A stretch of DNA of 64,000 nt from assembly GCA_024402405.1 (NCBI GenBank), contig JAKSTW010000001.1, forward strand, positions 1-64,000. Direction: 5' to 3'. A program made the translations under genes and the position numbers. The DNA is from Spirochaetia bacterium (GTDB lineage: Bacteria; Spirochaetota; Spirochaetia; CADAEX01). Shown here piece by piece: positions 1 to 10,995 of the stretch (its first letter is position 1; every line of letters begins with the position of its first letter). The notes beneath the pieces are model-generated. The model saw only the letters and a program-made list of their open reading frames with translations, had not been told where the DNA came from and did no database searches.

Positions 1-218
1 CAATCTTTCAAGTATTCCTTGATTTGAGCGAGACAGTTCCTGACATCTTTCACAAGCTGTACTTCTTCCGAACTCGCCTTCCCCGCTACAGAAATTATCT
101 TTTCTTCCGACAGCTTTAACAAGAAATCCAATACTTCATGGCTCTCATGTTTCTTCCCGATTCTTTTCTTTGTTAATCCGAACCTAATCGTCTTTGAAAT
201 TTGATATTTATTTTCCAT
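1..218 (-). CDS. N-terminus of a possible second Cas12-type effector (partial, runs off window)
   Basis: An open frame starts at ATG 218 and is still open at position 1, giving 72 residues. The protein begins MENKYQISKTIRFGLTKK, which shares the pattern Y-x-(I/L)-S-K-T-(I/L)-R-F-x-L with the N-terminus of the neighbouring Cas12a (YSLSKTLRFELKP). A lysine/glutamate-rich, probably helical stretch follows. The start is well supported: GAAGG lies 6 bases before the ATG, and only 19 bases separate it from the Cas12a stop codon, so the two genes are almost certainly co-transcribed. The resemblance covers about a dozen residues, so assignment to Cas12a2, a duplicated Cas12a or another type V family is inference. 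No catalytic motif is inside the window. Confidence 0.5.
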   Translation of the reverse strand, partial: MENKYQISKTIRFGLTKKRIGKKHESHEVLDFLLKLSEEKIISVAGKASSEEVQLVKDVRNCLAQIKEYLKD

Positions 219-237
219 AAAGAACCTTCTATTTTAC

Positions 238-3200
238 CTAGTTTTGGTATTCTTTTTCTTGAATAAACTTAAACCAGTCGGCGTTAGAAATATTGATTTT
301 CAACTTTTTCAAATCCTTTGTATCAGCAGTATCAAACCGTTTCAACAGTTCAAGTCCTTTCAACGCGATATTAAATGCACCGTTTGCATCTGCATTTGCC
401 GGTAATGTAGCCATATCACCTTTCTTCAACTGTTCACGACTGTCAAAGAAAGTGCCATCGTCAGCCATTACAGGTGAAATAATATAATCTTCCCCTGTCT
501 GAGCATTTGAATTACGCATCTGCAGAACAAGCTTGAAATTATAAAGAAGCGTATCCCAGAATTCTGCAATTTCTTTTACTGGTCTTTCGCCGTCTTTCAA
601 ATCTGCGCCGATTGTCATAATAGAGTCTAGAATATCGTCACCATTCTGATAAGCAATACCCTGTTTTTCAAAACACTTAGCCAGTTTTTCAGTCACATTG
701 ACATCTTCATATTTCTTCTCTTTGAAAAGATAGACAATACGCTTATCCTTTGAATATACATTCCACTTTGTGCGGCTAAGTTCTTTACCACCTTTACCAT
801 CAAAGTTCTTATAATCAAAAGTGAAAACAAATGAATCTGTTTTATTGTCATACCTTATGCTGTCAAATCTGCTGAAGAAATCGTGTTTCTTATGAACATT
901 CGTCAGATCTTTGAATGAAAGCATATCGACAAAACCTGTCTTAGGATCAATTTTAGAGGTGTAACCAGCGGGAACATAAAACAGGAAGCCAGACTGTTTT
1001 CCAAGTTTTTGGAAACTTTCGAACTGGCCTGCAAGCTGGTAACCATTCAAAACGCCACCAGATTCTGTTAAACCTCGATTCTTAAATACAAGATAATTCA
1101 GTTTATCTATAAGCATGTGTTCAAATTTCTGATAAACTTGTTTTTCAACATGAAAACGTCCTCGTTTAAAACCAAAGTTTAAATCTTCCATAACAATAAT
1201 TGCATTGTTTTCAACCATAAGTTTTGTGAGTTGATGAATTACAGCAGAAAGATAACCTTCTTTTAATTCTGCAATCTTACCGATTGACTGCCAGCTCTTT
1301 CTAGCAGCATCGCGCTCCTGTTCTCTCTGATTCAGTTTCTCATGGTAGTTTACTTTAATCTTCTGACCGTTTTTTACACGTTCGACCTCATTGAAAGTAA
1401 ACTGTTTAAGAATTTCCCCTTTTTGATTGATTAACGTACAGTAAATCAGATGACGTTCGCCACGATCCAATCCAATTACATTTACGTCAGGGTTGTTTTT
1501 CAAGAACTTACGGACACGCTCATTCATAGATAATGAAGACCCAGAAGCCTTGAAATTGATGGTAAGTGGAACATGGAACAGGAATTTTGGTTCTGTATAG
1601 TGCCTGTCTTTTGTAATGTCGTGAGAAACAGTTTTTATAATAACCCTATGGTTCGATTTATATTCTTCTGCTTCTTTTGATAATGTAGAACTCATTCCAT
1701 TTTCAAACTTGTAGATATCTGTATAGATAACTTCTGGAATTGATTCTCCTTCCGAAGTAATCTTGTTTACAAGCTTACTGCCTGTCTTATGAACAACAGG
1801 ATCTTTGATACCTTCAGGGCGATAGAACAATTCTGCCTCGCCATTCAGTTTAAGTACAACATCCGCGAGGTTTTCCTTGCTAAACAGATTTTTCCAATAT
1901 AATGTGTGCATATTAGGGGTACCAGTAGCACCGGGGGCAAAATCTTTGTTATAGATTTCAAAGAGATACAGCTTATTTTCCCGAACCATCTGAGTTATTT
2001 CACTTTCTGGAATATCAACGAAGGAGAGTTTATATCCCTGTTCAGATACTTCACGATAAAAATCACTTATATCCTTGTATGATTTCGTGTCTGAAAATTT
2101 GAAATTGAAGTTCTTCCAATCTTCATGTCTGTTGATGGCATCTTTGAACCAATCAATCAATTCATGACAGAACGAGATATCAAAAGAAGATCCCTTTTTG
2201 TGCTTCCCCTGTTCATAGCCAGTTACTATATATTCAGGTGGATTAAAAGTTGCTTTTCCTTTTGCTGAGAAGAAAACTTTTGGCAACATTTTATTCGGGC
2301 CAGGCAGCAATTTATACACCATTTTCTGATAGCAAGATTCACCCTTTGCTTCATAGACATCCAGAAACTTAGGTTTATCCTTTGGATTCATAATGCCCAG
2401 ATAATATTTACCGTCTTTCATCATCAGAACAGAAGTGTTTGCTTGTTCTTTGTTAAGATCCCAGCCATCTGCCAGTGTAGGATTATCGAAGTTCAATTTA
2501 TACTTTTCAGGGCTTGCAATTTTCTTAGTTATGTAATTTCTTGTTTTGTTATACAAACTGACAATTTCTCTTAAAGACGAGAAAACTGAATCGTACAAAG
2601 CGTAAAAACTTACATCACCAATTCCATTTACATTAAGTGGTTTGATTCTGTGAATTAACTCCTGAACTGAGTCCAGATAAGCCTTAATGCTGGCAACATC
2701 ATCGGCATTTTCGCGTAATGGATTTGCGGCATCAAGATTTTTCCAAACGGAATTCATCTTCTCCCGTTTCGAAAGAATATCATCACAAGTTTCTTTAATT
2801 GACAAAGCGACAAGGTCATTTCCCTGCACAAAGCAGCCAGTTTCTTTTTCTGTATAAAACCTGTTTCTGTGAGCAAAATAGTCTTCTATGCGAATATCTG
2901 TTGCAGAGATCTTTTCACTTTCATATTCAAGCATAGAGTTCAATTCAAAGAGACTGTAAACACCTTTGGACTTATTTTCACCTTCATCATCAAGTGATTT
3001 CTGCCAACGAGCCTTGTCAGTCTTGTTTGTAAATACTTCATCAGCATAGGCATTCATTCTGGACTGCAGCCAGCTCCAGTCCCCGGTCAGAATTCTTGAA
3101 ATATTGTTAATATCTTTGCGGTTTATATAAATCTCAGAAGTATTCTGTGTTTCGATGTTTTCAAACAAATCACAGCAGATATCAAAAACAGATTTTTTAT

Positions 3201-4212
3201 CGTCTCCTGATTTCTGTTCCAGTTTATCTGCACAAGTAAGAATGGCCTCTTTCAGCTCTTCATCAGAATCAACAGATGCAATTTTGAATGAGAGACTTGT
3301 ACGATCACTAAGTATCTGCTTATAAAGAGGAACCAACTTGATTTTTCTGTTTGTCTTGGCGAATTCAGGATTCTGCTGCCAATACAAGTTCAGAAACTCA
3401 TTAAACCCTCGCTTCTTACCTTCACTAGTGGAAACACCACCAATAACCTGATTATAGAAATCAATACCACGCTGTTTCTCACTGCCTTTCTGACAAAGAT
3501 ACTTGTTGAAAGAATTAATCTTAAAGATTTCTTCCAGTGTTTCTTCACCCAAATACTCTTTCAGTTCTTCTTCAACCTGCGCAAGTACAGAAGGACACTT
3601 TTCTTTAATCACTCTATAGAGTGAAATGTTCTGCAGAAATTTTGGGAAATTATCATTAACAAGACGGTAAGGAACTGCAGTCGGAATAGATTCTGCAGAA
3701 TATACATTCTTTCGGTTTTCCTGAAAACCCGTAAAATACGATGTGAACTTCTGGAAAGTTATAACAGCTTCTTTATTCAGTTCTTGTATGTTATTTTTTC
3801 CGAACCACTCTGGAAGAATATCGTTGAACAGATCTTTTGGAGTCGCAGCGTTCAAAGCTGCAAATCTCTTATCAGAACTGAATAATTTCAATATTGCTGT
3901 CCGAAGTTTTGACTGTTCTTTCTCAAGAAGAGTATCATCTGCTTTATCTTTTGCATAATTTTCAATTTCTTTTGCAAGAACAGACCAATCAAATTCAGCA
4001 TTTTGCAAGACATCATCAATAAAATACTGATGATAATTATCAATGATTCTTTTTACATCCTTATAGTCCTCAGACTTTTTTTTGTCTGATTCCAGAAACT
4101 TTCCCTTACGGATATTTTCTATTGTTTCAGCTTTAGGTTTCAATTCAAATCTCAATGTCTTTGAGAGTGAATACCCATTTCCCTGACCACAAAACTGTTC
4201 AATACCACTCAT
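238..4212 (-). CDS. cas12a: Cas12a (Cpf1), type V-A CRISPR effector nuclease
   Basis: RNA-guided DNA nuclease of 1324 residues, full length for Cas12a. The N-terminal signature YSLSKTLRFELKP is followed by the alpha-helical recognition lobe. The PAM-interacting/WED region carries GTPNMHTLYWKNLFS and LNGEAELFYRPEG. The pre-crRNA processing residues appear intact: H808, K817 nine residues later, and K868 (in TKDR) align with FnCas12a H843/K852/K869. RuvC I is GLDRGERH (D916), RuvC II is VMEDLNFGFKRGR (E1009), RuvC III is DANGAFNIA (D1275), and the Nuc arginine is in QMRNSNAQTGEDY (R1233). All key residues are present, so the protein should process crRNA and cut DNA. Its ATG overlaps the stop of the SPFH gene (ATGA), and GGTG just upstream can serve as ribosome binding site. 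No array or adaptation gene is in the window. Confidence 0.97.
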   Translation of the reverse strand: MSGIEQFCGQGNGYSLSKTLRFELKPKAETIENIRKGKFLESDKKKSEDYKDVKRIIDNYHQYFIDDVLQNAEFDWSVLAKEIENYAKDKADDTLLEKEQSKLRTAILKLFSSDKRFAALNAATPKDLFNDILPEWFGKNNIQELNKEAVITFQKFTSYFTGFQENRKNVYSAESIPTAVPYRLVNDNFPKFLQNISLYRVIKEKCPSVLAQVEEELKEYLGEETLEEIFKINSFNKYLCQKGSEKQRGIDFYNQVIGGVSTSEGKKRGFNEFLNLYWQQNPEFAKTNRKIKLVPLYKQILSDRTSLSFKIASVDSDEELKEAILTCADKLEQKSGDDKKSVFDICCDLFENIETQNTSEIYINRKDINNISRILTGDWSWLQSRMNAYADEVFTNKTDKARWQKSLDDEGENKSKGVYSLFELNSMLEYESEKISATDIRIEDYFAHRNRFYTEKETGCFVQGNDLVALSIKETCDDILSKREKMNSVWKNLDAANPLRENADDVASIKAYLDSVQELIHRIKPLNVNGIGDVSFYALYDSVFSSLREIVSLYNKTRNYITKKIASPEKYKLNFDNPTLADGWDLNKEQANTSVLMMKDGKYYLGIMNPKDKPKFLDVYEAKGESCYQKMVYKLLPGPNKMLPKVFFSAKGKATFNPPEYIVTGYEQGKHKKGSSFDISFCHELIDWFKDAINRHEDWKNFNFKFSDTKSYKDISDFYREVSEQGYKLSFVDIPESEITQMVRENKLYLFEIYNKDFAPGATGTPNMHTLYWKNLFSKENLADVVLKLNGEAELFYRPEGIKDPVVHKTGSKLVNKITSEGESIPEVIYTDIYKFENGMSSTLSKEAEEYKSNHRVIIKTVSHDITKDRHYTEPKFLFHVPLTINFKASGSSLSMNERVRKFLKNNPDVNVIGLDRGERHLIYCTLINQKGEILKQFTFNEVERVKNGQKIKVNYHEKLNQREQERDAARKSWQSIGKIAELKEGYLSAVIHQLTKLMVENNAIIVMEDLNFGFKRGRFHVEKQVYQKFEHMLIDKLNYLVFKNRGLTESGGVLNGYQLAGQFESFQKLGKQSGFLFYVPAGYTSKIDPKTGFVDMLSFKDLTNVHKKHDFFSRFDSIRYDNKTDSFVFTFDYKNFDGKGGKELSRTKWNVYSKDKRIVYLFKEKKYEDVNVTEKLAKCFEKQGIAYQNGDDILDSIMTIGADLKDGERPVKEIAEFWDTLLYNFKLVLQMRNSNAQTGEDYIISPVMADDGTFFDSREQLKKGDMATLPANADANGAFNIALKGLELLKRFDTADTKDLKKLKINISNADWFKFIQEKEYQN

Positions 4213-5126
4213 TTCTTCACCACTTCGGAAAGGCTGCTTACCAGACCGGTCATGCTCTGGATCTCTGACGGAATGATTATCTTGGTGGACTGTCCCTCTC
4301 CTACTCGCTCAAAGGCTTCCAGACTACGCAGCTTTATGACTGCATCATCCGGCTGGGCATTCCGCAGCAGCTTGATACCTTCTGCCTTGGCATTCTGCAC
4401 TTCCACAATGGCCTCTGCCTCACCCTGAGCCCTCTTGACAGCAGCTTCCTTGTCTGCCTCCGCACTCAGGATCCTGGCCTCTTTCTGTGCCTGTGCCTCC
4501 AGTATCATTGCCTGTTTCTTTCCTTCAGCCTCCAGAATAGCACTCTGCTTGTGTCCCTCTGCAATAAGGATCTGCTCACGGCGCTCACGTTCGGCACGCA
4601 TCTGCTTTTCCATGGCTTCTCTGATGGCATCCGGCGGAATGATGTTCTTCACCTCAACACGGTTCACCTTGATTCCCCATGGGTCTGTGGCCTCATCCAG
4701 AATGCTTCTCATCTTTGTATTGATGACATCACGGCTGGTCAGTGTCTGATCCAGTTCCAGCTCTCCGATGATATTACGCAGTGTGGTTGCAGAAAGATTT
4801 TCCAGGGCATTTATAGGCTTCTCAACACCGTATGTATACAGCTTCGGATCTGTGATCTGGAAATAGACCACAGTATCGATCATCATGGTCACATTATCCT
4901 TGGTGATCACAGGCTGCGGAGGGAAATCCAGGACCTTCTCCTTCAGTGAGACACGGTTCACATAGCGGTCAATGAAAGGAACCTTCACATGCAGACCCAC
5001 ATTCCATGTCTTGTAATAAGCACCCAGCCTCTCAATGATCACAGCCTGAGACTGTGACACCAGCTTTATATTGAAAATTATTATCAGCAGAACCAGTCCG
5101 CAGAATCCCATAAAAACATTCATCAT
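4209..5126 (-). CDS. SPFH/Band 7 (stomatin/QmcA-like) membrane protein
   Basis: 305 residues. An N-terminal membrane anchor (about residues 5-22) is followed by the SPFH domain (AVIIERLGAYYKTWNVGLH, then VITKDNVTMMIDTVVYFQI) and a long Glu/Ala/Arg-rich coiled coil from about 170 to 250. The C-terminus (IQSMTGLVSS) is typical of the family. Such proteins form oligomeric membrane scaffolds and usually pair with NfeD proteins, as here: the NfeD gene is immediately upstream with a 13-base gap. AAGGAGGA precedes the tandem ATGs at 5126/5123. The stop codon overlaps the Cas12a start, which is unusual for this otherwise housekeeping pair. Confidence 0.93.
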   Translation of the reverse strand: MMNVFMGFCGLVLLIIIFNIKLVSQSQAVIIERLGAYYKTWNVGLHVKVPFIDRYVNRVSLKEKVLDFPPQPVITKDNVTMMIDTVVYFQITDPKLYTYGVEKPINALENLSATTLRNIIGELELDQTLTSRDVINTKMRSILDEATDPWGIKVNRVEVKNIIPPDAIREAMEKQMRAERERREQILIAEGHKQSAILEAEGKKQAMILEAQAQKEARILSAEADKEAAVKRAQGEAEAIVEVQNAKAEGIKLLRNAQPDDAVIKLRSLEAFERVGEGQSTKIIIPSEIQSMTGLVSSLSEVVKK

Positions 5127-5139
5127 CTTATTTTCCTCC

Positions 5140-5586
5140 TTAATATTCCTTTACGATCAGGGTATTTCCCTCTATATCCACGACCACGCACTTTGTCCCT
5201 ATCTCCAGAACTTTGCCGTCCGCAGCCATGGCATTCCATATCACTCCGTTTGAAGCCTTCACTGTCCCTTTGTCGAACTCAGTGATCCTTCCGGACACCA
5301 GTACATTTTTTCCCACCAGAGAGTCAGCATTAGTCCTGTACTTGCCAACCTTAAGCTTCCGCATGAAAAAAGATCTGGTGAACAGGATCAGCAGCACATT
5401 CAGAACTACAAAGATCACCACCTGAAGGCTGAACACCAGTCCGGTCAGTGAAATAAAAATCAGTACAAAAGCACTGATGGCACTCCAGATAGTCACCAGC
5501 CCCACAGTCATGGCCTCTATTATCACCGCCAGTACCAGAACGCCGAACCAGAACCAGAACAGATGGCACATAAGAAATTCAATCAT
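5140..5586 (-). CDS. NfeD-family membrane protein
   Basis: 148 residues from the preferred ATG at 5586, which has AGGAGG six bases upstream. A longer frame to 5646 lacks a ribosome site and would run into the promoter. Two to three hydrophobic segments (about residues 8-70) precede a C-terminal OB-fold domain with the NfeD pattern, including SLVGKNVLVSGRI, KGTVKASNGVIWNA and VVDIEGNTLIVKEY. Short NfeD proteins are standard operon partners of SPFH proteins and are thought to support membrane-domain assembly. It is the first gene of the run NfeD-SPFH-Cas12a-second effector. Confidence 0.88.
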   Translation of the reverse strand: MIEFLMCHLFWFWFGVLVLAVIIEAMTVGLVTIWSAISAFVLIFISLTGLVFSLQVVIFVVLNVLLILFTRSFFMRKLKVGKYRTNADSLVGKNVLVSGRITEFDKGTVKASNGVIWNAMAADGKVLEIGTKCVVVDIEGNTLIVKEY

Positions 5587-5605
5587 CCATTCCCTCCTTT
5601 TTGTT

Positions 5606-5614
5606 ATTATAGCA
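5606..5614 (-). promoter_or_regulatory. Extended -10 promoter for nfeD-SPFH-cas12a
   Basis: On the minus strand the sequence reads TGCTATAAT, a perfect extended -10 (TGnTATAAT), about 20 bases before the NfeD start. No good -35 is seen, as expected for extended -10 promoters. It is the only clear promoter found upstream of cas12a. Confidence 0.5.
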
Positions 5615-5645
5615 TATCTACCTGTATCAAATAATGCTACATCCA

Positions 5646-5674
5646 TTGAAAAATTCCATAATTTTTGTTATTTT
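5646..5674 (+). promoter_or_regulatory. Promoter of the nucleotidyltransferase-TPM-LemA operon
   Basis: TTGAAA (5646-5651) and TATTTT (5669-5674) are separated by exactly 17 bases, upstream of the ATG at 5693. It lies back to back with the NfeD promoter. Confidence 0.45.
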
Positions 5675-5692: not shown

Positions 5693-6421
5693 ATGAAGAT
5701 CACCCAGCAAGATGAAAGACTGGCAAAAGTCGAGAAAGAGCTTCTGCCGCAGATAAAAACAGCATTTGGAGAAAATCTCCATTCTGTAATCATTTATGGA
5801 AGTATCCTGACAAAGCAGTTCAATCCGCTCACCTCTGATGTCAATGTTCTGATCATTCCAAAAGAGGCTGATCCTGAACGTATTGTCGTGCTGGGAAAAT
5901 ACTGTGCCAAGACCTTCACTCAATACAAGATCACACCTACAGTCATGAGCTGCAGGGAATTCATTGACTCCGCTGACGTATTTCCAATGGAATACCTGGA
6001 TATAAAAGACAAGCACAAAACTATTTACGGGGAAGATATAACAGACCGGCTGGACATAACCACCAGAAATCTGCGTCATCAGGTGGAGGACAGGCTCCGC
6101 GGATGCATCAACTCGCTGCGTCAGGTTCTCATGCTCTCCGACAGCAGACCGCGGCTTCTGGCTCTGGGCGTTCGGAACACACATGGTCTCTACAATGCCA
6201 TATTCCGGGCAATACTCAGACTGAAAAAACACCCGGAAGTATATTTCAGCTATAAGAACAACCTGACAGCATTATCAGAATATATCAACTTTGACATAGA
6301 TCCATTCCTTCAGCTGCGCAGCATCAACAAGGAGACACCGCTGGAAAAAGTGATATGCGATGCCATTCTGCAGCTGCTCATAATAGTTGAGGATGTTGAC
6401 AAAATGGAAGTGGACGGATGA
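5693..6421 (+). CDS. Nucleotidyltransferase-fold protein of unknown substrate
   Basis: 242 residues. The pol-beta-type motif is visible at about residues 41-60: VIIYGSILTKQFNPLTSDVN. The usual D-x-D metal pair reads D-V-N, so the second carboxylate is missing; catalysis may be altered, or this may be the norm in its subfamily. The C-terminal half is helical (RHQVEDRLRGCINSLRQ). GGAG lies about 9 bases before the ATG. Its stop overlaps the next start (ATGA), coupling it to the TPM and LemA genes. The role is unknown; a conserved hypothetical nucleotidyltransferase is the safest call. Confidence 0.7.
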   Translation: MKITQQDERLAKVEKELLPQIKTAFGENLHSVIIYGSILTKQFNPLTSDVNVLIIPKEADPERIVVLGKYCAKTFTQYKITPTVMSCREFIDSADVFPMEYLDIKDKHKTIYGEDITDRLDITTRNLRHQVEDRLRGCINSLRQVLMLSDSRPRLLALGVRNTHGLYNAIFRAILRLKKHPEVYFSYKNNLTALSEYINFDIDPFLQLRSINKETPLEKVICDAILQLLIIVEDVDKMEVDG

Positions 6422-7203
6422 AAAAAGTTCTCCTTCTTCTGTGCATCATCTGCCTCTGTCCGTTCATCACACTGGCTGACGATGTGCCCGACTATGTTGG
6501 TTTCGTCAACGATTTTGCCAATATCATCCCTGAAAAAGACAAGAGGATCATGAACACTGTGATCACGGAGCTCAGGGAAAAGACAAAGGCTGAGATCGCA
6601 GTGCTCACAGTAAAATCCATGGCGCCATATACGGTCATTGAGGATTTTTCCATGGCCGTGGCGGAGAAATGGAAAGTAGGCTCCAAGGATGATGAGGGAA
6701 TAATACTGGTCCTGGCACTGGAAGAAAGGCAGATCCGTCTGGAAGTGGGTTACGGACTTGAGGGCATAATAAATGACGCCATGGCTGGGCGGATCCTCAG
6801 GAACAATATAATTCCATTCTTCAATGGCGGAGAATACGGTACAGGTCTGCGCCATGGTGTATGCAAGATAGCAGATATAATCAGCAAGGAAAAAGGCGTT
6901 GAGCTGGAAGAGAATCCGGTGATGGACAACAAGCAGAGTGAGAGCATATGCCTGCTGATTTTCATGGGTGTTGTAATCTATATACTGATCATGGCTAACA
7001 GGAGAAGGATCTCCTCCAGCCGTACAGGAAGGAAATATTACGGTGGAAGTTTCGGAGGAATGCATTCCGGACGCGGCAGCGGACGGGGCAGTTTCGGCGG
7101 ATTCGATGGCGGCAGTTTCGGCGGCTACGGAGGCTTTGGCGGAGGTGGCGGCGGATTCGGCGGCGGTGGGTTCGGCGGTGGCGGAGCTTCCAGCGGATTC
7201 TGA
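6418..7203 (+). CDS. TPM-domain (YgcG-like) membrane protein with Gly-rich tail
   Basis: 261 residues. A signal peptide (about 1-20) is followed by a TPM domain (VPDYVGFVNDFANIIPEKD, later VGYGLEGIINDAMAGRIL), a single transmembrane helix around residues 178-194, and a C-terminal tail rich in Gly, Ser and Phe ending in a run of FGGGG-type units. This architecture is typical of YgcG-type proteins of uncertain function that occur next to LemA genes, as here (13-base gap). The tail's repetitive DNA (about 7040-7195) is simply the Gly codons. Confidence 0.9.
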   Translation: MKKVLLLLCIICLCPFITLADDVPDYVGFVNDFANIIPEKDKRIMNTVITELREKTKAEIAVLTVKSMAPYTVIEDFSMAVAEKWKVGSKDDEGIILVLALEERQIRLEVGYGLEGIINDAMAGRILRNNIIPFFNGGEYGTGLRHGVCKIADIISKEKGVELEENPVMDNKQSESICLLIFMGVVIYILIMANRRRISSSRTGRKYYGGSFGGMHSGRGSGRGSFGGFDGGSFGGYGGFGGGGGGFGGGGFGGGGASSGF

Positions 7204-7215
7204 AAGGAGAGAAAG

Positions 7216-7782
7216 ATGAAGAATAAAGGATTTACAGCAGTACTGGTATTTATCGTTGCCATCGTGGCAGTCGTAGGCTGGTACTTCAGCACAAGAAACA
7301 AACTGGTGACACTGGAAGAGGATACATCCTCAGCATGGGCAGAGATCGACAATCAGCTCCAGCGCCGCTGCGACCTGATACCAAACCTGGTGAACACAGT
7401 GAAGGGTTATGCAAAGCATGAGAGCGAAGTTTTCGGCAACATTGCTGAAGCCAGATCTAAGCTGGCAGGTGCCCAGACAGTAGAAGAGAAATCTGAAGGC
7501 TACAACGAGCTCCAGGGTGCACTGAGCAGACTGCTCATGGTCGTGGAAAATTATCCTGAACTTAAGAGCAATGCAAACTTCCAGCAGCTTCAGGACGAGC
7601 TGGCAGGAACAGAAAACCGCATCGCAGTTGCCAGAAAACGCTATAACGACAAGGTGCGCAGTTTCAATACTCAGATAAAGGTCTTCCCATCATCTTTTGT
7701 AGCAGAGAGAATGGGACTGGAGAAAAAATCCTACTTTGAGATCGCAGAATCAGCAAGAGCTGTTCCGAAGGTAGAGTTCTGA
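7216..7782 (+). CDS. lemA: LemA family protein
   Basis: 188 residues. One N-terminal membrane helix (about 5-23) is followed by the LemA domain with its hallmark signature around residues 40-60: WAEIDNQLQRRCDLIPNLVN and then VKGYAKHE. LemA proteins have an N-out membrane anchor and a long helical body; their molecular role is unclear. GAAAGGAGAGAAAG precedes the ATG. The last 33 bases overlap the 3' end of the convergent dihydroorotase gene. Confidence 0.95.
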   Translation: MKNKGFTAVLVFIVAIVAVVGWYFSTRNKLVTLEEDTSSAWAEIDNQLQRRCDLIPNLVNTVKGYAKHESEVFGNIAEARSKLAGAQTVEEKSEGYNELQGALSRLLMVVENYPELKSNANFQQLQDELAGTENRIAVARKRYNDKVRSFNTQIKVFPSSFVAERMGLEKKSYFEIAESARAVPKVEF

Positions 7783-8808
7783 TTCCATTATTGTCTTGAG
7801 AATCCCCTTGTGGTAACTCCAGGAAACATTTTTTCCTGCCATGAGGGGAACCACTCCGTCTATTTCATCAGGGATCCTGAATCCGGCTTTAACCAGAGTG
7901 ATCTTATCCTCAGACACAGGCAGCCCATAAAATTCAGGACCGAACACGGACATAAAGTTTTCCAGTTTATCCAGACAGCCGTATTGCTCAAAAAGCTCAG
8001 CCATCAGCGGAACAGCACATGGGGCAGAATAAATGCCGCCGCCGGCAGAACCTGATTCCTTTTTTATCCTCAGATGAGGCGCACTGTCAGATCCGAAAAA
8101 GAATTTCTTATTCCCGGAAAAGGCAGCTTCCCGTATGGCAGCTCTGTCCCTTTCAGTCTTAACTACAGGTTTGCAGAAATTATGGGGATTCATATTGCCG
8201 CCTATCACATCATCCAGAGTCAGCAGCAGATGATGGGCAGTGATGGTTCCGGCTATATTTTCCCCCATGCCATCCACCAGATCAATAGAACGACGGTCAG
8301 AAATATGTTCAAACACGATCTTCAGATCAGGAAAAGCTTTGGCTATCGCACGGAATTCGCTGTGATATTTATATTCCCTGTCCAGACAATATGCATCAGG
8401 TCTTTCACAATGGATGGAAAGGATCATCCCCAGATCACACATAGTGGCCAAGGCTATCTTGATATTATGCCAGGTCTTTACGCCATCCTCGGAATTTGTC
8501 GTAGCTCCTGCAGGATAAAGCTTACCCACGGCAGCACCGGCATCATGGAGCTTTCTGACAACAGAACTTTTCATCCCGGGCAGCAGCTTGAAGGACATGA
8601 CTGTTCTGAAATCCGGATTCAGCTTTCTGATCTGCCCGGCATAATCTGTCAGCCTTTCAGGAGTGCTTACAGGCGGAATCGTATTGGGCATGACCAGCCC
8701 GCCGCAGAACCATTTTGACTGATCCCGCACTGTAGTGGCCAGCAGTTCTCCCTGCCGGAGATGCATATGCATATCATAAGGTTTCCGCATCGTAAAGCTA
8801 TTTTCCAT
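7750..8808 (-). CDS. pyrC: Dihydroorotase (E. coli PyrC type)
   Basis: 352 residues, close to the usual length of about 348. It interconverts N-carbamoyl-aspartate and dihydroorotate in pyrimidine synthesis. The metal-binding H-x-H is in PYDMHMHLRQGE. Other metal or substrate motifs are VGKLYPAGATTNS (the carbamylated Lys is expected here), ILSIHCERPD, IVFEHISDRRS, TITAHHLLL and FFGSDSAPH. AAAGGGAG precedes the ATG. It is monocistronic, divergent from the dehydrogenase gene and convergent with lemA. Confidence 0.96.
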   Translation of the reverse strand: MENSFTMRKPYDMHMHLRQGELLATTVRDQSKWFCGGLVMPNTIPPVSTPERLTDYAGQIRKLNPDFRTVMSFKLLPGMKSSVVRKLHDAGAAVGKLYPAGATTNSEDGVKTWHNIKIALATMCDLGMILSIHCERPDAYCLDREYKYHSEFRAIAKAFPDLKIVFEHISDRRSIDLVDGMGENIAGTITAHHLLLTLDDVIGGNMNPHNFCKPVVKTERDRAAIREAAFSGNKKFFFGSDSAPHLRIKKESGSAGGGIYSAPCAVPLMAELFEQYGCLDKLENFMSVFGPEFYGLPVSEDKITLVKAGFRIPDEIDGVVPLMAGKNVSWSYHKGILKTIMESELYLRNSSC

Positions 8809-8865
8809 ATAAACTCCCTTTCCTTTACTATAAGTTTAAAGTATAATCTTTGCAAGGAGATAGAA

Positions 8866-9837
8866 ATGGCAGGTAAAAAAGTACTGGTTGCCCTTGATGT
8901 GGAAGAAAGGCACAAAAAAACTCTGGAAAGTGCATATCCGGAAGGAGAATTCATCTATTGCGGCAGCAAGGGTTATGAGCCATTTCTGTCACAGGCAAAT
9001 ATAATCATAGGCGATATCAAGCCTGCCATGCTCAGACAGGCCGTAAACCTGGAATGGCTCCAGACTCCTAATGCGGGAGTGGATCCATTTACCAGCAATA
9101 TCGATATGATTCCTGAGAATCTGATCCTGACCTGTGCAACAGGTTCTTATGGTCTTGCCATATCAGAATACATGCTGGGCTGTGTCCTGTCCCTCATGAA
9201 ACATCTGGACAGATACAGGATCAACCAGACGAAACACCTGTGGAAAGATGAGGGACATGTGACCTCTATCCAGGGAAGCACCACACTGGTAGTCGGAATG
9301 GGAGACATCGGCAGTGATTTCGGCAGGAAAATGCACCTGCTGGGCAGCACTGTGTATGGCATCCGCAGGCATCAGGCACCAAAGCCTGACTGGGCTGAGG
9401 CAGTATATACCATGGATGCACTGGACGATCTCCTTGGCAGGGCTGATATTGTGGCACTGTGTCTTCCGAAGACTCCATCCACCATACATCTCATGGATAT
9501 GGCTAAATTCAGGAAAATGAAAAAAACAGCCATTCTTGTAAATATAGGCAGAGGAGCAGCCATAATGACTGACGACCTGTGCACAGCCCTGAATCAGCAC
9601 ATAATAGCAGGTGCTGCAGTTGATGTGACAGACCCGGAACCACTCCCTCCTGATCACCCACTGTGGGATGCAGAGAACATAATCATCACCCCGCATACAT
9701 CAGGACAGAACCACCTGCCGGAGACCTTCGAACGGATCATCAGGCTGAGTGCAAGAAATCTGGCACTTTACAAAGAGGGAAAGCCGCTGGAAAGCCAAGT
9801 GGATCTCAAAGCTGGCTATAGAATATACAGAGGCTGA
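8866..9837 (+). CDS. D-isomer 2-hydroxyacid dehydrogenase family protein
   Basis: 323 residues from ATG 8866, which follows AAGGAGA at good spacing; TATAAT lies at 8842-8847. A longer frame from 8761 would run through the dihydroorotase promoter region and is rejected. The Rossmann motif is VVGMGDIGSDFG. The catalytic Arg is in NIGRGAAI, the Glu in DVTDPEPLP and the His in IITPHTSGQ, so all three are present. The substrate cannot be read from sequence; members reduce glyoxylate, hydroxypyruvate or other 2-oxoacids with NAD(P)H. The aminotransferase follows after 9 bases, suggesting linked amino-acid/2-oxoacid chemistry. Confidence 0.92.
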   Translation: MAGKKVLVALDVEERHKKTLESAYPEGEFIYCGSKGYEPFLSQANIIIGDIKPAMLRQAVNLEWLQTPNAGVDPFTSNIDMIPENLILTCATGSYGLAISEYMLGCVLSLMKHLDRYRINQTKHLWKDEGHVTSIQGSTTLVVGMGDIGSDFGRKMHLLGSTVYGIRRHQAPKPDWAEAVYTMDALDDLLGRADIVALCLPKTPSTIHLMDMAKFRKMKKTAILVNIGRGAAIMTDDLCTALNQHIIAGAAVDVTDPEPLPPDHPLWDAENIIITPHTSGQNHLPETFERIIRLSARNLALYKEGKPLESQVDLKAGYRIYRG

Positions 9838-9846
9838 GGAGATAAT

Positions 9847-10995
9847 ATGACAGCAGAAAGAGTCGCTAATTCAGAAACCACAATATTCACAGTGGTGAAC
9901 ACACTGGCAGCAAAATATAATGCGGTGGGACTCAGCCAGGGAGCTCCTGACTTTGACACACCGGCATGGGTCCTCGACATAGTGCGTGAAGCCTTCACAC
10001 TGGGACGGAATCAGTATGCACCGCTGTCAGGAGTACCTGAGTTCAGACAGGCTATCAGTGATGTATACAGCAGAAAATACGATCTGCATTTCAACCCGAA
10101 CACACAGATCACAGTGACCAGCGGAGCCACTGAAGCGATCTTTGACAGCGTCATGGCTGTGTGCGACCCAGGCGATGAGCTTATAGTATTCGAGCCTTTC
10201 TTTGATTCATATGCAGGCAGCGCAAAAATGGCAGGCTGCCGCATGAAAGCCGTTACTCTCCATCTGCCGGACTTCACATTTGACAGAAAAGAGCTGGAAA
10301 ATGCCATAACACCTAAGACAAAAGCCATTCTCATAAACAATCCGAACAATCCGTCAGGCAAGGTCTATTCAAGAGAAGAACTGACTGTGATATCAGAAAT
10401 AGCCAATAAATACGATCTGACAGTCATAAGTGATGAGGTCTATGAGAATCTTGTGTTTGATGGTTTGAAACACATTCCTACAGCATCAATACCAGGACTT
10501 GAGAACAGGACCATAACAATAAATTCCACAGCCAAGACATTTTCTGCCACAGGCTGGAAAATAGGTTATATATGTGCCCCTGAATATCTGACCGCCGCAG
10601 TTCAGGCTGTCCACCAGTGGGTCACTTTCGCAGTGAATACCCCTATTCAGATAGCATTTTCCAAGATTCTTCCACAGGCAGACAGATACTCAGCTGATTT
10701 CTGCACAGAAATGGAAAAGCGGAGAAATTATCTTCTGGAAAGATCTGCGAACTGGGGATTTGATCCGATAAGACCTTCCGGCTCATATTTCTTCATGGCC
10801 ACATTCGGCAAACTGTCAGCATCAAGTGACATGGATTTTATGGAGCAGCTTATCCGTGAAAGACACGTGGCACTGATTCCGGCATCACCGTTCTACCTGA
10901 ATGCCAAAGATGAAGGACAGAAACTGCTGAGATTCAACTTCGTCAAATCAATGGCAGCCCTTGAGCAGGCTGATAAAAATATGACAATGTTCTGA
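9847..10995 (+). CDS. PLP-dependent aminotransferase, class I/II
   Basis: 382 residues. Fold-type I features include GLSQGAPDFDTP near the N-terminus, TVTSGATEAIFDS, the NNPNNPSGKVY motif, ISDEVYENL, and the Schiff-base lysine in STAKTFSATGWKIGY. The C-terminal substrate-carboxylate Arg is probably the one in LLRFNFVKS. It resembles aspartate/methionine/kynurenine-type aminotransferases; the substrate is unknown. GAGGAGATAAT precedes the ATG. The gene sits directly behind the dehydrogenase and 7 bases before the hydrolase, probably as one operon. Confidence 0.93.
   Translation: MTAERVANSETTIFTVVNTLAAKYNAVGLSQGAPDFDTPAWVLDIVREAFTLGRNQYAPLSGVPEFRQAISDVYSRKYDLHFNPNTQITVTSGATEAIFDSVMAVCDPGDELIVFEPFFDSYAGSAKMAGCRMKAVTLHLPDFTFDRKELENAITPKTKAILINNPNNPSGKVYSREELTVISEIANKYDLTVISDEVYENLVFDGLKHIPTASIPGLENRTITINSTAKTFSATGWKIGYICAPEYLTAAVQAVHQWVTFAVNTPIQIAFSKILPQADRYSADFCTEMEKRRNYLLERSANWGFDPIRPSGSYFFMATFGKLSASSDMDFMEQLIRERHVALIPASPFYLNAKDEGQKLLRFNFVKSMAALEQADKNMTMF

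What the first reader, a model, noticed from the sequence alone, without database searches (positions are those of the whole stretch)
1..4212. Cas12a in tandem with a second protein that begins like a Cas12 effector
Nineteen bases after the Cas12a stop, a new gene with a good ribosome site starts and stays open to the window edge. Its first residues (Y-x-I-SKT-I-RF-x-L) mirror the Cas12a N-terminal signature, then diverge. Tandem Cas12a plus a diverged relative is known for Cas12a2, an RNA-triggered nuclease that causes abortive infection and can share crRNAs with Cas12a. A tandem here could be such a pair, a duplicated Cas12a or a new effector class. The similarity is short, so the identity of the second protein is inference.
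Basis: partly seen in the sequence, partly recalled or inferred. Interest (0 to 1): 0.85.

Follow-up and report, generated by a model that had tools for sequence, protein, structure and literature searches.

The report
Cas12a paired with Cas12a2, shared CRISPR
A bacterium carries two different CRISPR nucleases side by side, apparently fed by one memory array: Cas12a, which cuts matching invader DNA, and Cas12a2, whose known relative shuts the cell down when it sees matching invader RNA; such pairs were already described.

Summary
The window begins at base 1 of a contig, so only 72 residues are visible. They match Sulfuricurvum Cas12a2 and no Cas12a among solved structures. The rest starts at the edge of contig C12 of the same genome: a 730-residue frame, 49-51% identical to three Cas12a2 proteins and grouping with them 100/100. 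It keeps the RuvC triad, crRNA-processing residues, four zinc cysteines and the cleaved-strand aromatic clamp. Then come cas4-cas1-cas2 and a 26-repeat V-A array. In three sister genomes the two contigs' flanks lie on one contig, 2.4-7.0 kb apart and facing as predicted, so the contigs adjoin. About 400 residues (1.2 kb) are unassembled. Best reading: Cas12a clears DNA; Cas12a2, loaded from the same array, is an RNA-triggered abortive second tier. Such tandems are in print (PMC9811890), so this is a new member of a known kind. Extra: G030 and, with two small frames between, G568 carry Cas12a followed by a Cas12a3-like effector, hinting at a swappable second slot.

The parts
3..218 (-). 5' end of cas12a2 (72 residues, cut by the contig edge; continues after a gap at G000:C12:3-2195 +)
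238..4212 (-). cas12a, 1324 aa; RuvC residues D916, E1009 and D1275 read from motifs
219..237 (-). 19-base gap between the two genes with a ribosome-site-like AGAAGG
4209..5126 (-). SPFH/Band 7 protein (305 aa), its end overlapping the cas12a start by 4 bases (ATGA); probably a neighbour rather than a part of the system
5140..5646 (-). NfeD-like partner of the SPFH protein (168 aa), a neighbour
5693..6421 (+). conserved flanking gene (242 aa, nucleotidyltransferase-like by eye, no Pfam match): left border of the variable defence slot in sister genomes

Best explanation
The locus is a dual-effector type V CRISPR system: cas12a - cas12a2 - cas4 - cas1 - cas2 - array, on one strand, split over two contigs. 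Most likely mechanism: Cas4-Cas1-Cas2 add spacers to the one array found beside them. Transcripts of the array carry the V-A handle, which both proteins can cut and load. Cas12a uses the guides to cut invader DNA. Cas12a2 uses the same guides to scan RNA; a transcript that matches and carries an A-rich 3' flank opens its RuvC site, and it then degrades RNA, ssDNA and dsDNA without regard to sequence, halting the cell before phage spreads. Shown here: gene order, identity, conserved active-site residues, the array, one cas1 in the assembly. Inferred from SuCas12a2 work (PMC9811890, PMC9849127): guide sharing, RNA triggering, collateral dsDNA cleavage and abortive outcome.
For: The N-terminal 72 residues match Cas12a2 best. 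C12 carries the C-terminal 730 residues: 665 bits to SuCas12a2; 51%, 51% and 49% identical to three Cas12a2 proteins (the third over 485 positions) that are 47-54% identical to one another, 23% to a Cas12a3-like protein, 19-20% to Cas12a; clade support 100/100 (local blastp identities are lower, 46-48%). Conserved in SuCas12a2 numbering: D848, E1063, D1213, K784, R785, Y1069, F1092, C1170, C1173, C1188, C1191 (roles). Adjacency: in G001, G002 and G004 the homologues of window genes 5693-10995 face the homologue of C12's pyruvate carboxylase gene in the orientation that predicts C1's left end meets C12's start. The window and C12 hold the only matches in the genome to Pfam REC1, PDLC01230 and Cas1. 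Array: 26 identical repeats ending AATTTCTACTGTTGTAGAT, 25 spacers of 25-29 nt, starting 105 bases after cas2. The repeat end read from the other strand is AUCUA, the 'self' flank that did not activate SuCas12a2. Tandem with a shared array is in print.
Against: About 400 residues between the two pieces are absent from the assembly, so an internal deletion or frameshift cannot be excluded; Y465 lies there. Y1080 is T, although a later study found Y1080A harmless in vitro. No convincing protospacer was found (8 of 25 spacers in IMG/VR, whole array against phages and plasmids), so PAM/PFS use and strand are untested; the nearest candidate is at chance level (E 6). Whether a second array exists elsewhere in the genome was not searched.
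Confidence: 0.88

Rival explanations
1. The cas12a2 gene is damaged (a deletion, or a deletion plus an insertion in the REC lobe), and only Cas12a works. This would also explain why the assembly breaks here.
For: Two contigs end inside this one gene and no contig holds the middle. A mobile-element copy collapsed elsewhere in the assembly would break contigs.
Against: A simple insertion would leave both ends at neighbouring codons; here about 400 residues lie between them. The first 120 bases of C1 match nowhere else in the genome at E<=0.001 (the start of C12 was not searched). Both ends are open, and the C-terminal part keeps the catalytic and zinc residues, which argues against long decay.
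Confidence: 0.08
2. The second protein is a Cas12a3- or Cas12a4-type enzyme that cleaves RNA (tRNA tails in Cas12a3) and not DNA.
For: Cas12a3 and Cas12a4 share the RuvC, zinc ribbon and processing residues, and Cas12a3-like enzymes lie downstream of Cas12a in two other genomes of the phylum. One of the two clamp residues is not a clean discriminator: the Cas12a3-like G030 protein also aligns F at 1092, though K at 1069.
Against: 38 bits to Ba1Cas12a3 against 665 to SuCas12a2; 23% identity to the Cas12a3-like G030 protein; Y1069 and F1092 kept, where the paper says Cas12a3 lacks the clamp regions and conservation in the two clades is limited. No Cas12a4 sequence was available for comparison.
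Confidence: 0.03
3. The N-terminal piece and the C12 piece belong to two different cas12a2-like genes.
For: The DNA between them is not assembled.
Against: One N-terminal and one C-terminal hit in the genome, at facing contig ends, with sister synteny joining the two contigs, and the same gene order cas12a-effector-cas4-cas1 in G030.
Confidence: 0.02

Closest known systems
Cas12a2 of Sulfuricurvum sp. PC08-66 (SuCas12a2; PDB 8d49, 8d4a, 8d4b)
   Same: About 50% identical over the C-terminal 700 residues; same RuvC triad, processing residues, zinc cysteines and cleaved-strand clamp; same V-A handle AATTTCTACTGTTGTAGAT beside the gene.
   Different: Y1080 is T here; in the 22.2 kb held of the Sulfuricurvum locus there is no Cas12a; the middle of our protein is unseen.
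Published tandem cas12a2-cas12a loci with a shared array (PMC9811890, text and legend of Fig. 1)
   Same: Two effectors, one array, adjoining genes.
   Different: The figure and the supplement could not be read, so whether this very locus or organism is among the examples is unknown.
Cas12a3 (Ba1Cas12a3, PDB 9hlx; PMC12851939)
   Same: RNA-triggered relative with RuvC and zinc ribbon.
   Different: 38 bits only; Cas12a3 is said to lack the aromatic clamp regions, of which two residues are kept here.

Membership tests
Cas12a2 | Sequence clade with known Cas12a2, apart from Cas12a and Cas12a3 | tested here: met
   665 bits to SuCas12a2; 100/100 clade with three Cas12a2 proteins in a tree of 7 rows
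Cas12a2 | RuvC triad D848, E1063, D1213 | tested here: met
   D343, E543, D710 of P0001
Cas12a2 | Zinc ribbon in place of the Nuc domain (C1170, C1173, C1188, C1191) | tested here: met
   All four cysteines align; no Pfam NUC match at E<=0.01; the paper's cysteines
Cas12a2 | crRNA-processing residues K784, R785 | tested here: met
   K282, R283 of P0001
Cas12a2 | Aromatic clamps Y1069/F1092 and Y465/Y1080 | tested here: inconclusive
   Y1069 and F1092 kept, Y1080 is T, Y465 unassembled. The other Cas12a2 proteins vary too: W at 1069 in two, R at 1080 and Y at 1092 in one, L aligned at 465 in one
[quoted passage not shown]
   The region aligned with SuCas12a2 870-1030 is present; no structure was computed
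Cas12a2 | REC1/REC2 lobe of Cas12a2 type | tested here: inconclusive
   About 400 residues are not in the assembly
Cas12a2 | RNA-triggered collateral RNA and DNA cleavage, SOS induction, abortive outcome | not testable with these tools
   Needs the bench
Type V-A locus (Cas12a) | Cas12a with intact domains next to cas4, cas1, cas2 and a V-A array | tested here: met
   adjacency by sister synteny
Cas12a3 | Sequence clade of Cas12a3; clamp regions absent | tested here: not met
   38 bits, 23% identity to a Cas12a3-like protein, two clamp residues present
Cas12a4 | Sequence clade of Cas12a4 | not tested
   No Cas12a4 sequence was at hand

The most novel reading that the evidence does not exclude
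In this phylum the position behind cas12a is a swappable second-tier slot: one adaptation module and one array feed a DNA-clearing Cas12a plus whichever RNA-triggered shutdown nuclease occupies the slot, a DNA shredder (Cas12a2, here) or a tRNA-tail-cutter type (Cas12a3-like, in G030 and G568). Selection may act on the pair, with the second enzyme covering Cas12a escape and anti-Cas12a proteins.
Probability: 0.35. Interest if true: 0.65.

Novelty: new member of a known kind. Interest (0 to 1): 0.42.

Why it matters
How Cas12a and an RNA-triggered relative divide the work when they share guides is an open question; PMC9811890 says further research is needed (passage). This locus supplies a small-genome example with one cas1 and an array of 25 guides. 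Together with the two Cas12a/Cas12a3-like loci it allows a direct comparison: same first effector, different second effector.

Tried and rejected
Duplicated Cas12a: rejected; the fragment and the C12 piece match Cas12a2, not Cas12a. New effector class: rejected on the same evidence. Cas12a3/Cas12a4: see rivals.

Missing middle: searched in the own genome with a model of three Cas12a2 REC regions at E<=10; only the known C12 edge matched. Shared contig-end sequence: none for the first 120 bases of C1; the start of C12 was not searched.

Protospacers: the whole array was compared with 50,697 phage records and 72,556 plasmid records at E<=10. Phages: 68 records matched, best E 0.5; 60 of 68 rows seen. 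Plasmids: 26 records, best E 0.4, all 26 rows seen. Held against the spacer positions, the phage rows fall on the repeat, straddle repeat and spacer, or match part of a spacer. The nearest to a protospacer is spacer 2 in Streptococcus agalactiae phages (14 of 21 rows seen): 23 of its first 24 bases, E 6, in a T-rich stretch. In phage LF1 the 5' flank is TTTA, which fits a Cas12a PAM, and the gene is read so that its mRNA would pair with the guide. E 6 and the distant host make me treat it as chance. Synechococcus phage ACG-2014b rows take 7 repeat bases and 19 of spacer 18 (E 0.5), also treated as chance. Eight of 25 spacers (20 to 22 bases each, exact) gave 0 matches in IMG/VR; 17 were not tested there.

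First genome-contig scan with the 72-aa fragment: 120 stretches, 0 relatives. The plasmid tblastn gave 4 records at E 2 or worse, unrelated. Dropped row: G043 (114-aa frame, E 5.5e-6, profile 863-913 only), taken as a TnpB-like relative and not examined. At E<=10 the PDLC01230 model also rings in 7 of 14 control genomes, at 1e-15 in 0 of 14; the C12 match is at 1.6e-100. In one search the alignment put S opposite E1063 in the window's Cas12a; the motif scan shows the glutamate at 1009, so I treat that cell as misaligned. Positions printed for P0001 count alignment gaps and are not used. No structure was predicted: the rule admits window proteins and loci from other tools, and C12 was fetched another way.

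Full report
WHAT IS THERE. The window starts at base 1 of contig C1 of a 1.52-Mb, 53-contig genome. On the minus strand Cas12a runs from 4212 to 238 (1324 aa), and 19 bases after its stop a second frame starts at 218 and runs off the contig after 72 residues. Cas12a is typical: 1263.8 bits to TIGR04330, Pfam REC1, REC2, PI, RuvC and NUC, with RuvC D916, E1009 and D1275 read from motifs.

IDENTITY OF THE SECOND GENE. Against all PDB chains the 72 residues find SuCas12a2 at 8.5e-7 and no Cas12a. In the same genome the PADLOC model PDLC01230 finds, besides Cas12a and this fragment, a 730-residue frame at the very start of contig C12. It scores 665 bits to SuCas12a2 and 38 to Ba1Cas12a3. A second scan of the genome collection, with two peptide patterns only, returned 4 loci from 3 named genomes: Sulfuricurvum sp. 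PC08-66, an uncultured gammaproteobacterium and a Nanoarchaeota bin (2 contigs). The C12 protein is 51%, 51% and 49% identical to them (the last over 485 positions), which is as close as they are to one another (47-54%); it is 23% identical to the Cas12a3-like protein of G030 and 19-20% to Cas12a; it groups with the three at 100/100 (7 rows). The tool warns of long branches for G030's protein and the Cas12a rows; I judge that this does not touch the grouping of the four. The RuvC, processing and zinc residues align, as do clamp residues Y1069 and F1092; Y1080 is T. G030's Cas12a3-like protein also aligns F at 1092, with K at 1069. The roles of these residues come from passages of PMC9849127, PMC13232221 and PMC9811890.

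ONE LOCUS, TWO CONTIGS. By alignment with SuCas12a2 the two pieces flank about 400 missing residues, not found elsewhere in the assembly. Sister genomes settle the adjacency. In G001, G002 and G004, homologues of window genes 10995 down to 5693 run towards the homologue of C12's pyruvate carboxylase on one contig, with 2.4, 6.6 and 7.0 kb between. These are 3 of the 4 sister regions fetched around that gene; in the fourth (G006) the contig ends first; G003 and G005, whose gene is split between contigs, were not fetched. C12 continues with cas4, cas1 and cas2 and an array of 26 identical repeats (GTTTAATACTTATAAGAAATTTCTACTGTTGTAGAT) and 25 spacers. It holds the only cas1 found in the genome, and the 64-kb window has no V-A handle with up to 2 mismatches. 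Other contigs were not searched for further arrays.

A DEFENCE SLOT. Between the same flanks G001 has, as large frame, only a ligase-like gene named by eye, while G002 and G004 carry an AAA+ gene with an McrC gene, that is McrBC restriction. Near the right flank G006 has a resolvase and a gene with a TaqI-type specificity domain. Cas12a is in 1 of 7 genomes of the genus, own included. So the CRISPR locus looks like one species' occupant of a variable defence position.

HOW IT LIKELY WORKS. The published work on SuCas12a2 shows that it cuts its own crRNA, can exchange guides with Cas12a, needs a 3' flank such as GAAAG on target RNA, and then degrades RNA and DNA, inducing SOS and arrest (PMC9811890: abstract, sections 4 and 5, passages). 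The handle here is the same kind, and the end of the repeat gives AUCUA on the other strand, the self flank that did not activate. A T-rich PAM on DNA reads as an A-rich 3' flank on the RNA, so one acquisition rule could serve both enzymes (inference). Cas12a would be the clearing tier and Cas12a2 the shutdown tier. Guide sharing, triggering and outcome are inferred, not shown, for this protein. No convincing protospacer was found; the nearest, spacer 2 in a Streptococcus phage with a TTTA flank, is at E 6.

COMPARISON. PMC9811890 states that some systems hold cas12a2 and cas12a in tandem next to a shared array, so the arrangement is known. In wider samples, each counting the own genome, Cas12a2/a3-type effectors are rare: 3 of 98 relatives (own, G030 and one dropped fragment hit), 2 of 394 of the class (own, G030), 2 of 392 of the phylum with a second model (own, G568); the samples overlap. 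In all three genomes (own, G030, G568) Cas12a lies upstream on the same strand. G030 has cas12a (1330 aa), a 1220-aa effector with 226 bits to Cas12a3 and no SuCas12a2 match at E<=0.01, then cas4, cas1, cas2 and at least 61 repeats, the stretch held ending there. G568 has the last 113 residues of a Cas12a at a contig edge (149 bits, PADLOC), two small frames without a Pfam match above cut-off or a PADLOC match, a 1166-aa Cas12a3-like effector (386 bits), a BRO gene and cas4-cas1-cas2. In contrast, the three Cas12a2 genomes found show no Cas12a in the DNA held (22.2, 16.9 and 15.3 kb, the last in two pieces): a tblastn with two Cas12a proteins gave only weak matches that fall on the Cas12a2 genes themselves. 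In the main text of the Cas12a3 paper PMC12851939 I found no mention of Cas12a/Cas12a3 tandems (abstract, sections 4, 5, 9, 12, 14 and word searches; of two 'tandem' places one shown is a reference title, the other was not shown); its supplement was not readable. A search for 'Cas12a3' lists 17 of 19 papers, of which I judge from titles and counts that only this one concerns the protein.

VERDICT. Observation confirmed, interpretation supported, new member of a known kind. The added points are the context (a variable slot that holds McrBC in sisters) and the hint that the slot behind Cas12a takes different RNA-triggered partners.

Noticed in passing
L010 5391-18998 (G030:C1, same class): Complete cas12a followed by a Cas12a3-like effector (226 bits to Cas12a3 chain 21we), cas4, cas1, cas2 and at least 61 repeats: a Cas12a/Cas12a3-like tandem.
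   Followed up: partly
L040 365-8172 (G568:C389): Cas12a C-terminus at a contig edge, two small frames without a family match above cut-off, a Cas12a3-like effector, a BRO-N gene, cas4-cas1-cas2 and V-A repeats. A BRO/KilA-like gene sits between effector and cas4 in the Nanoarchaeota bin too (by eye).
   Followed up: partly
L018 2188-2268 (Capybara microvirus Cap1_SP_161, MK496734.1): An intergenic copy of the exact V-A handle AATTTCTACTGTTGTAGAT closed by an 11-bp outer stem and followed by a terminator-like hairpin (fold z -6.24, 0 of 200 shuffles): it looks like an RNA anti-CRISPR (Racr) against Cas12a-type enzymes, in a 5-kb phage. PMC10651486 tested three V-A Racrs; 'microvir' does not occur in its main text (passages; supplement not seen).
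   Followed up: partly
L019 1505-1585 (Leptospira phage LbrZ_5399, KF114879.1): Same layout: exact V-A handle inside a small stem, then a terminator-like hairpin (fold z -3.92), intergenic, with another repeat-like stretch directly upstream by eye.
   Followed up: partly
L041 121-152 (Capybara microvirus Cap1_SP_223, MK496751.1): A handle variant AATTTCTACTTTTGTAGAT lies intergenic before the replication gene.
   Followed up: partly
window 4209-4212: The SPFH gene end overlaps the cas12a start as ATGA; a close SPFH relative (E<=1e-20) is in 2 of 7 genomes of the genus, and G006, the other one, has no Cas12a.
   Followed up: partly
L032 9276-12999 and L033 6829-10564: McrB-like AAA+ gene with McrC at the chromosomal position of the CRISPR locus in two sister genomes.
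   Followed up: yes
L042 41-64 (Streptococcus phage LF1, MH853355.1): Weak candidate protospacer for spacer 2: 23 of 24 bases, 5' flank TTTA, gene read so that its mRNA pairs with the guide; E 6 and a distant host, so probably chance.
   Followed up: partly
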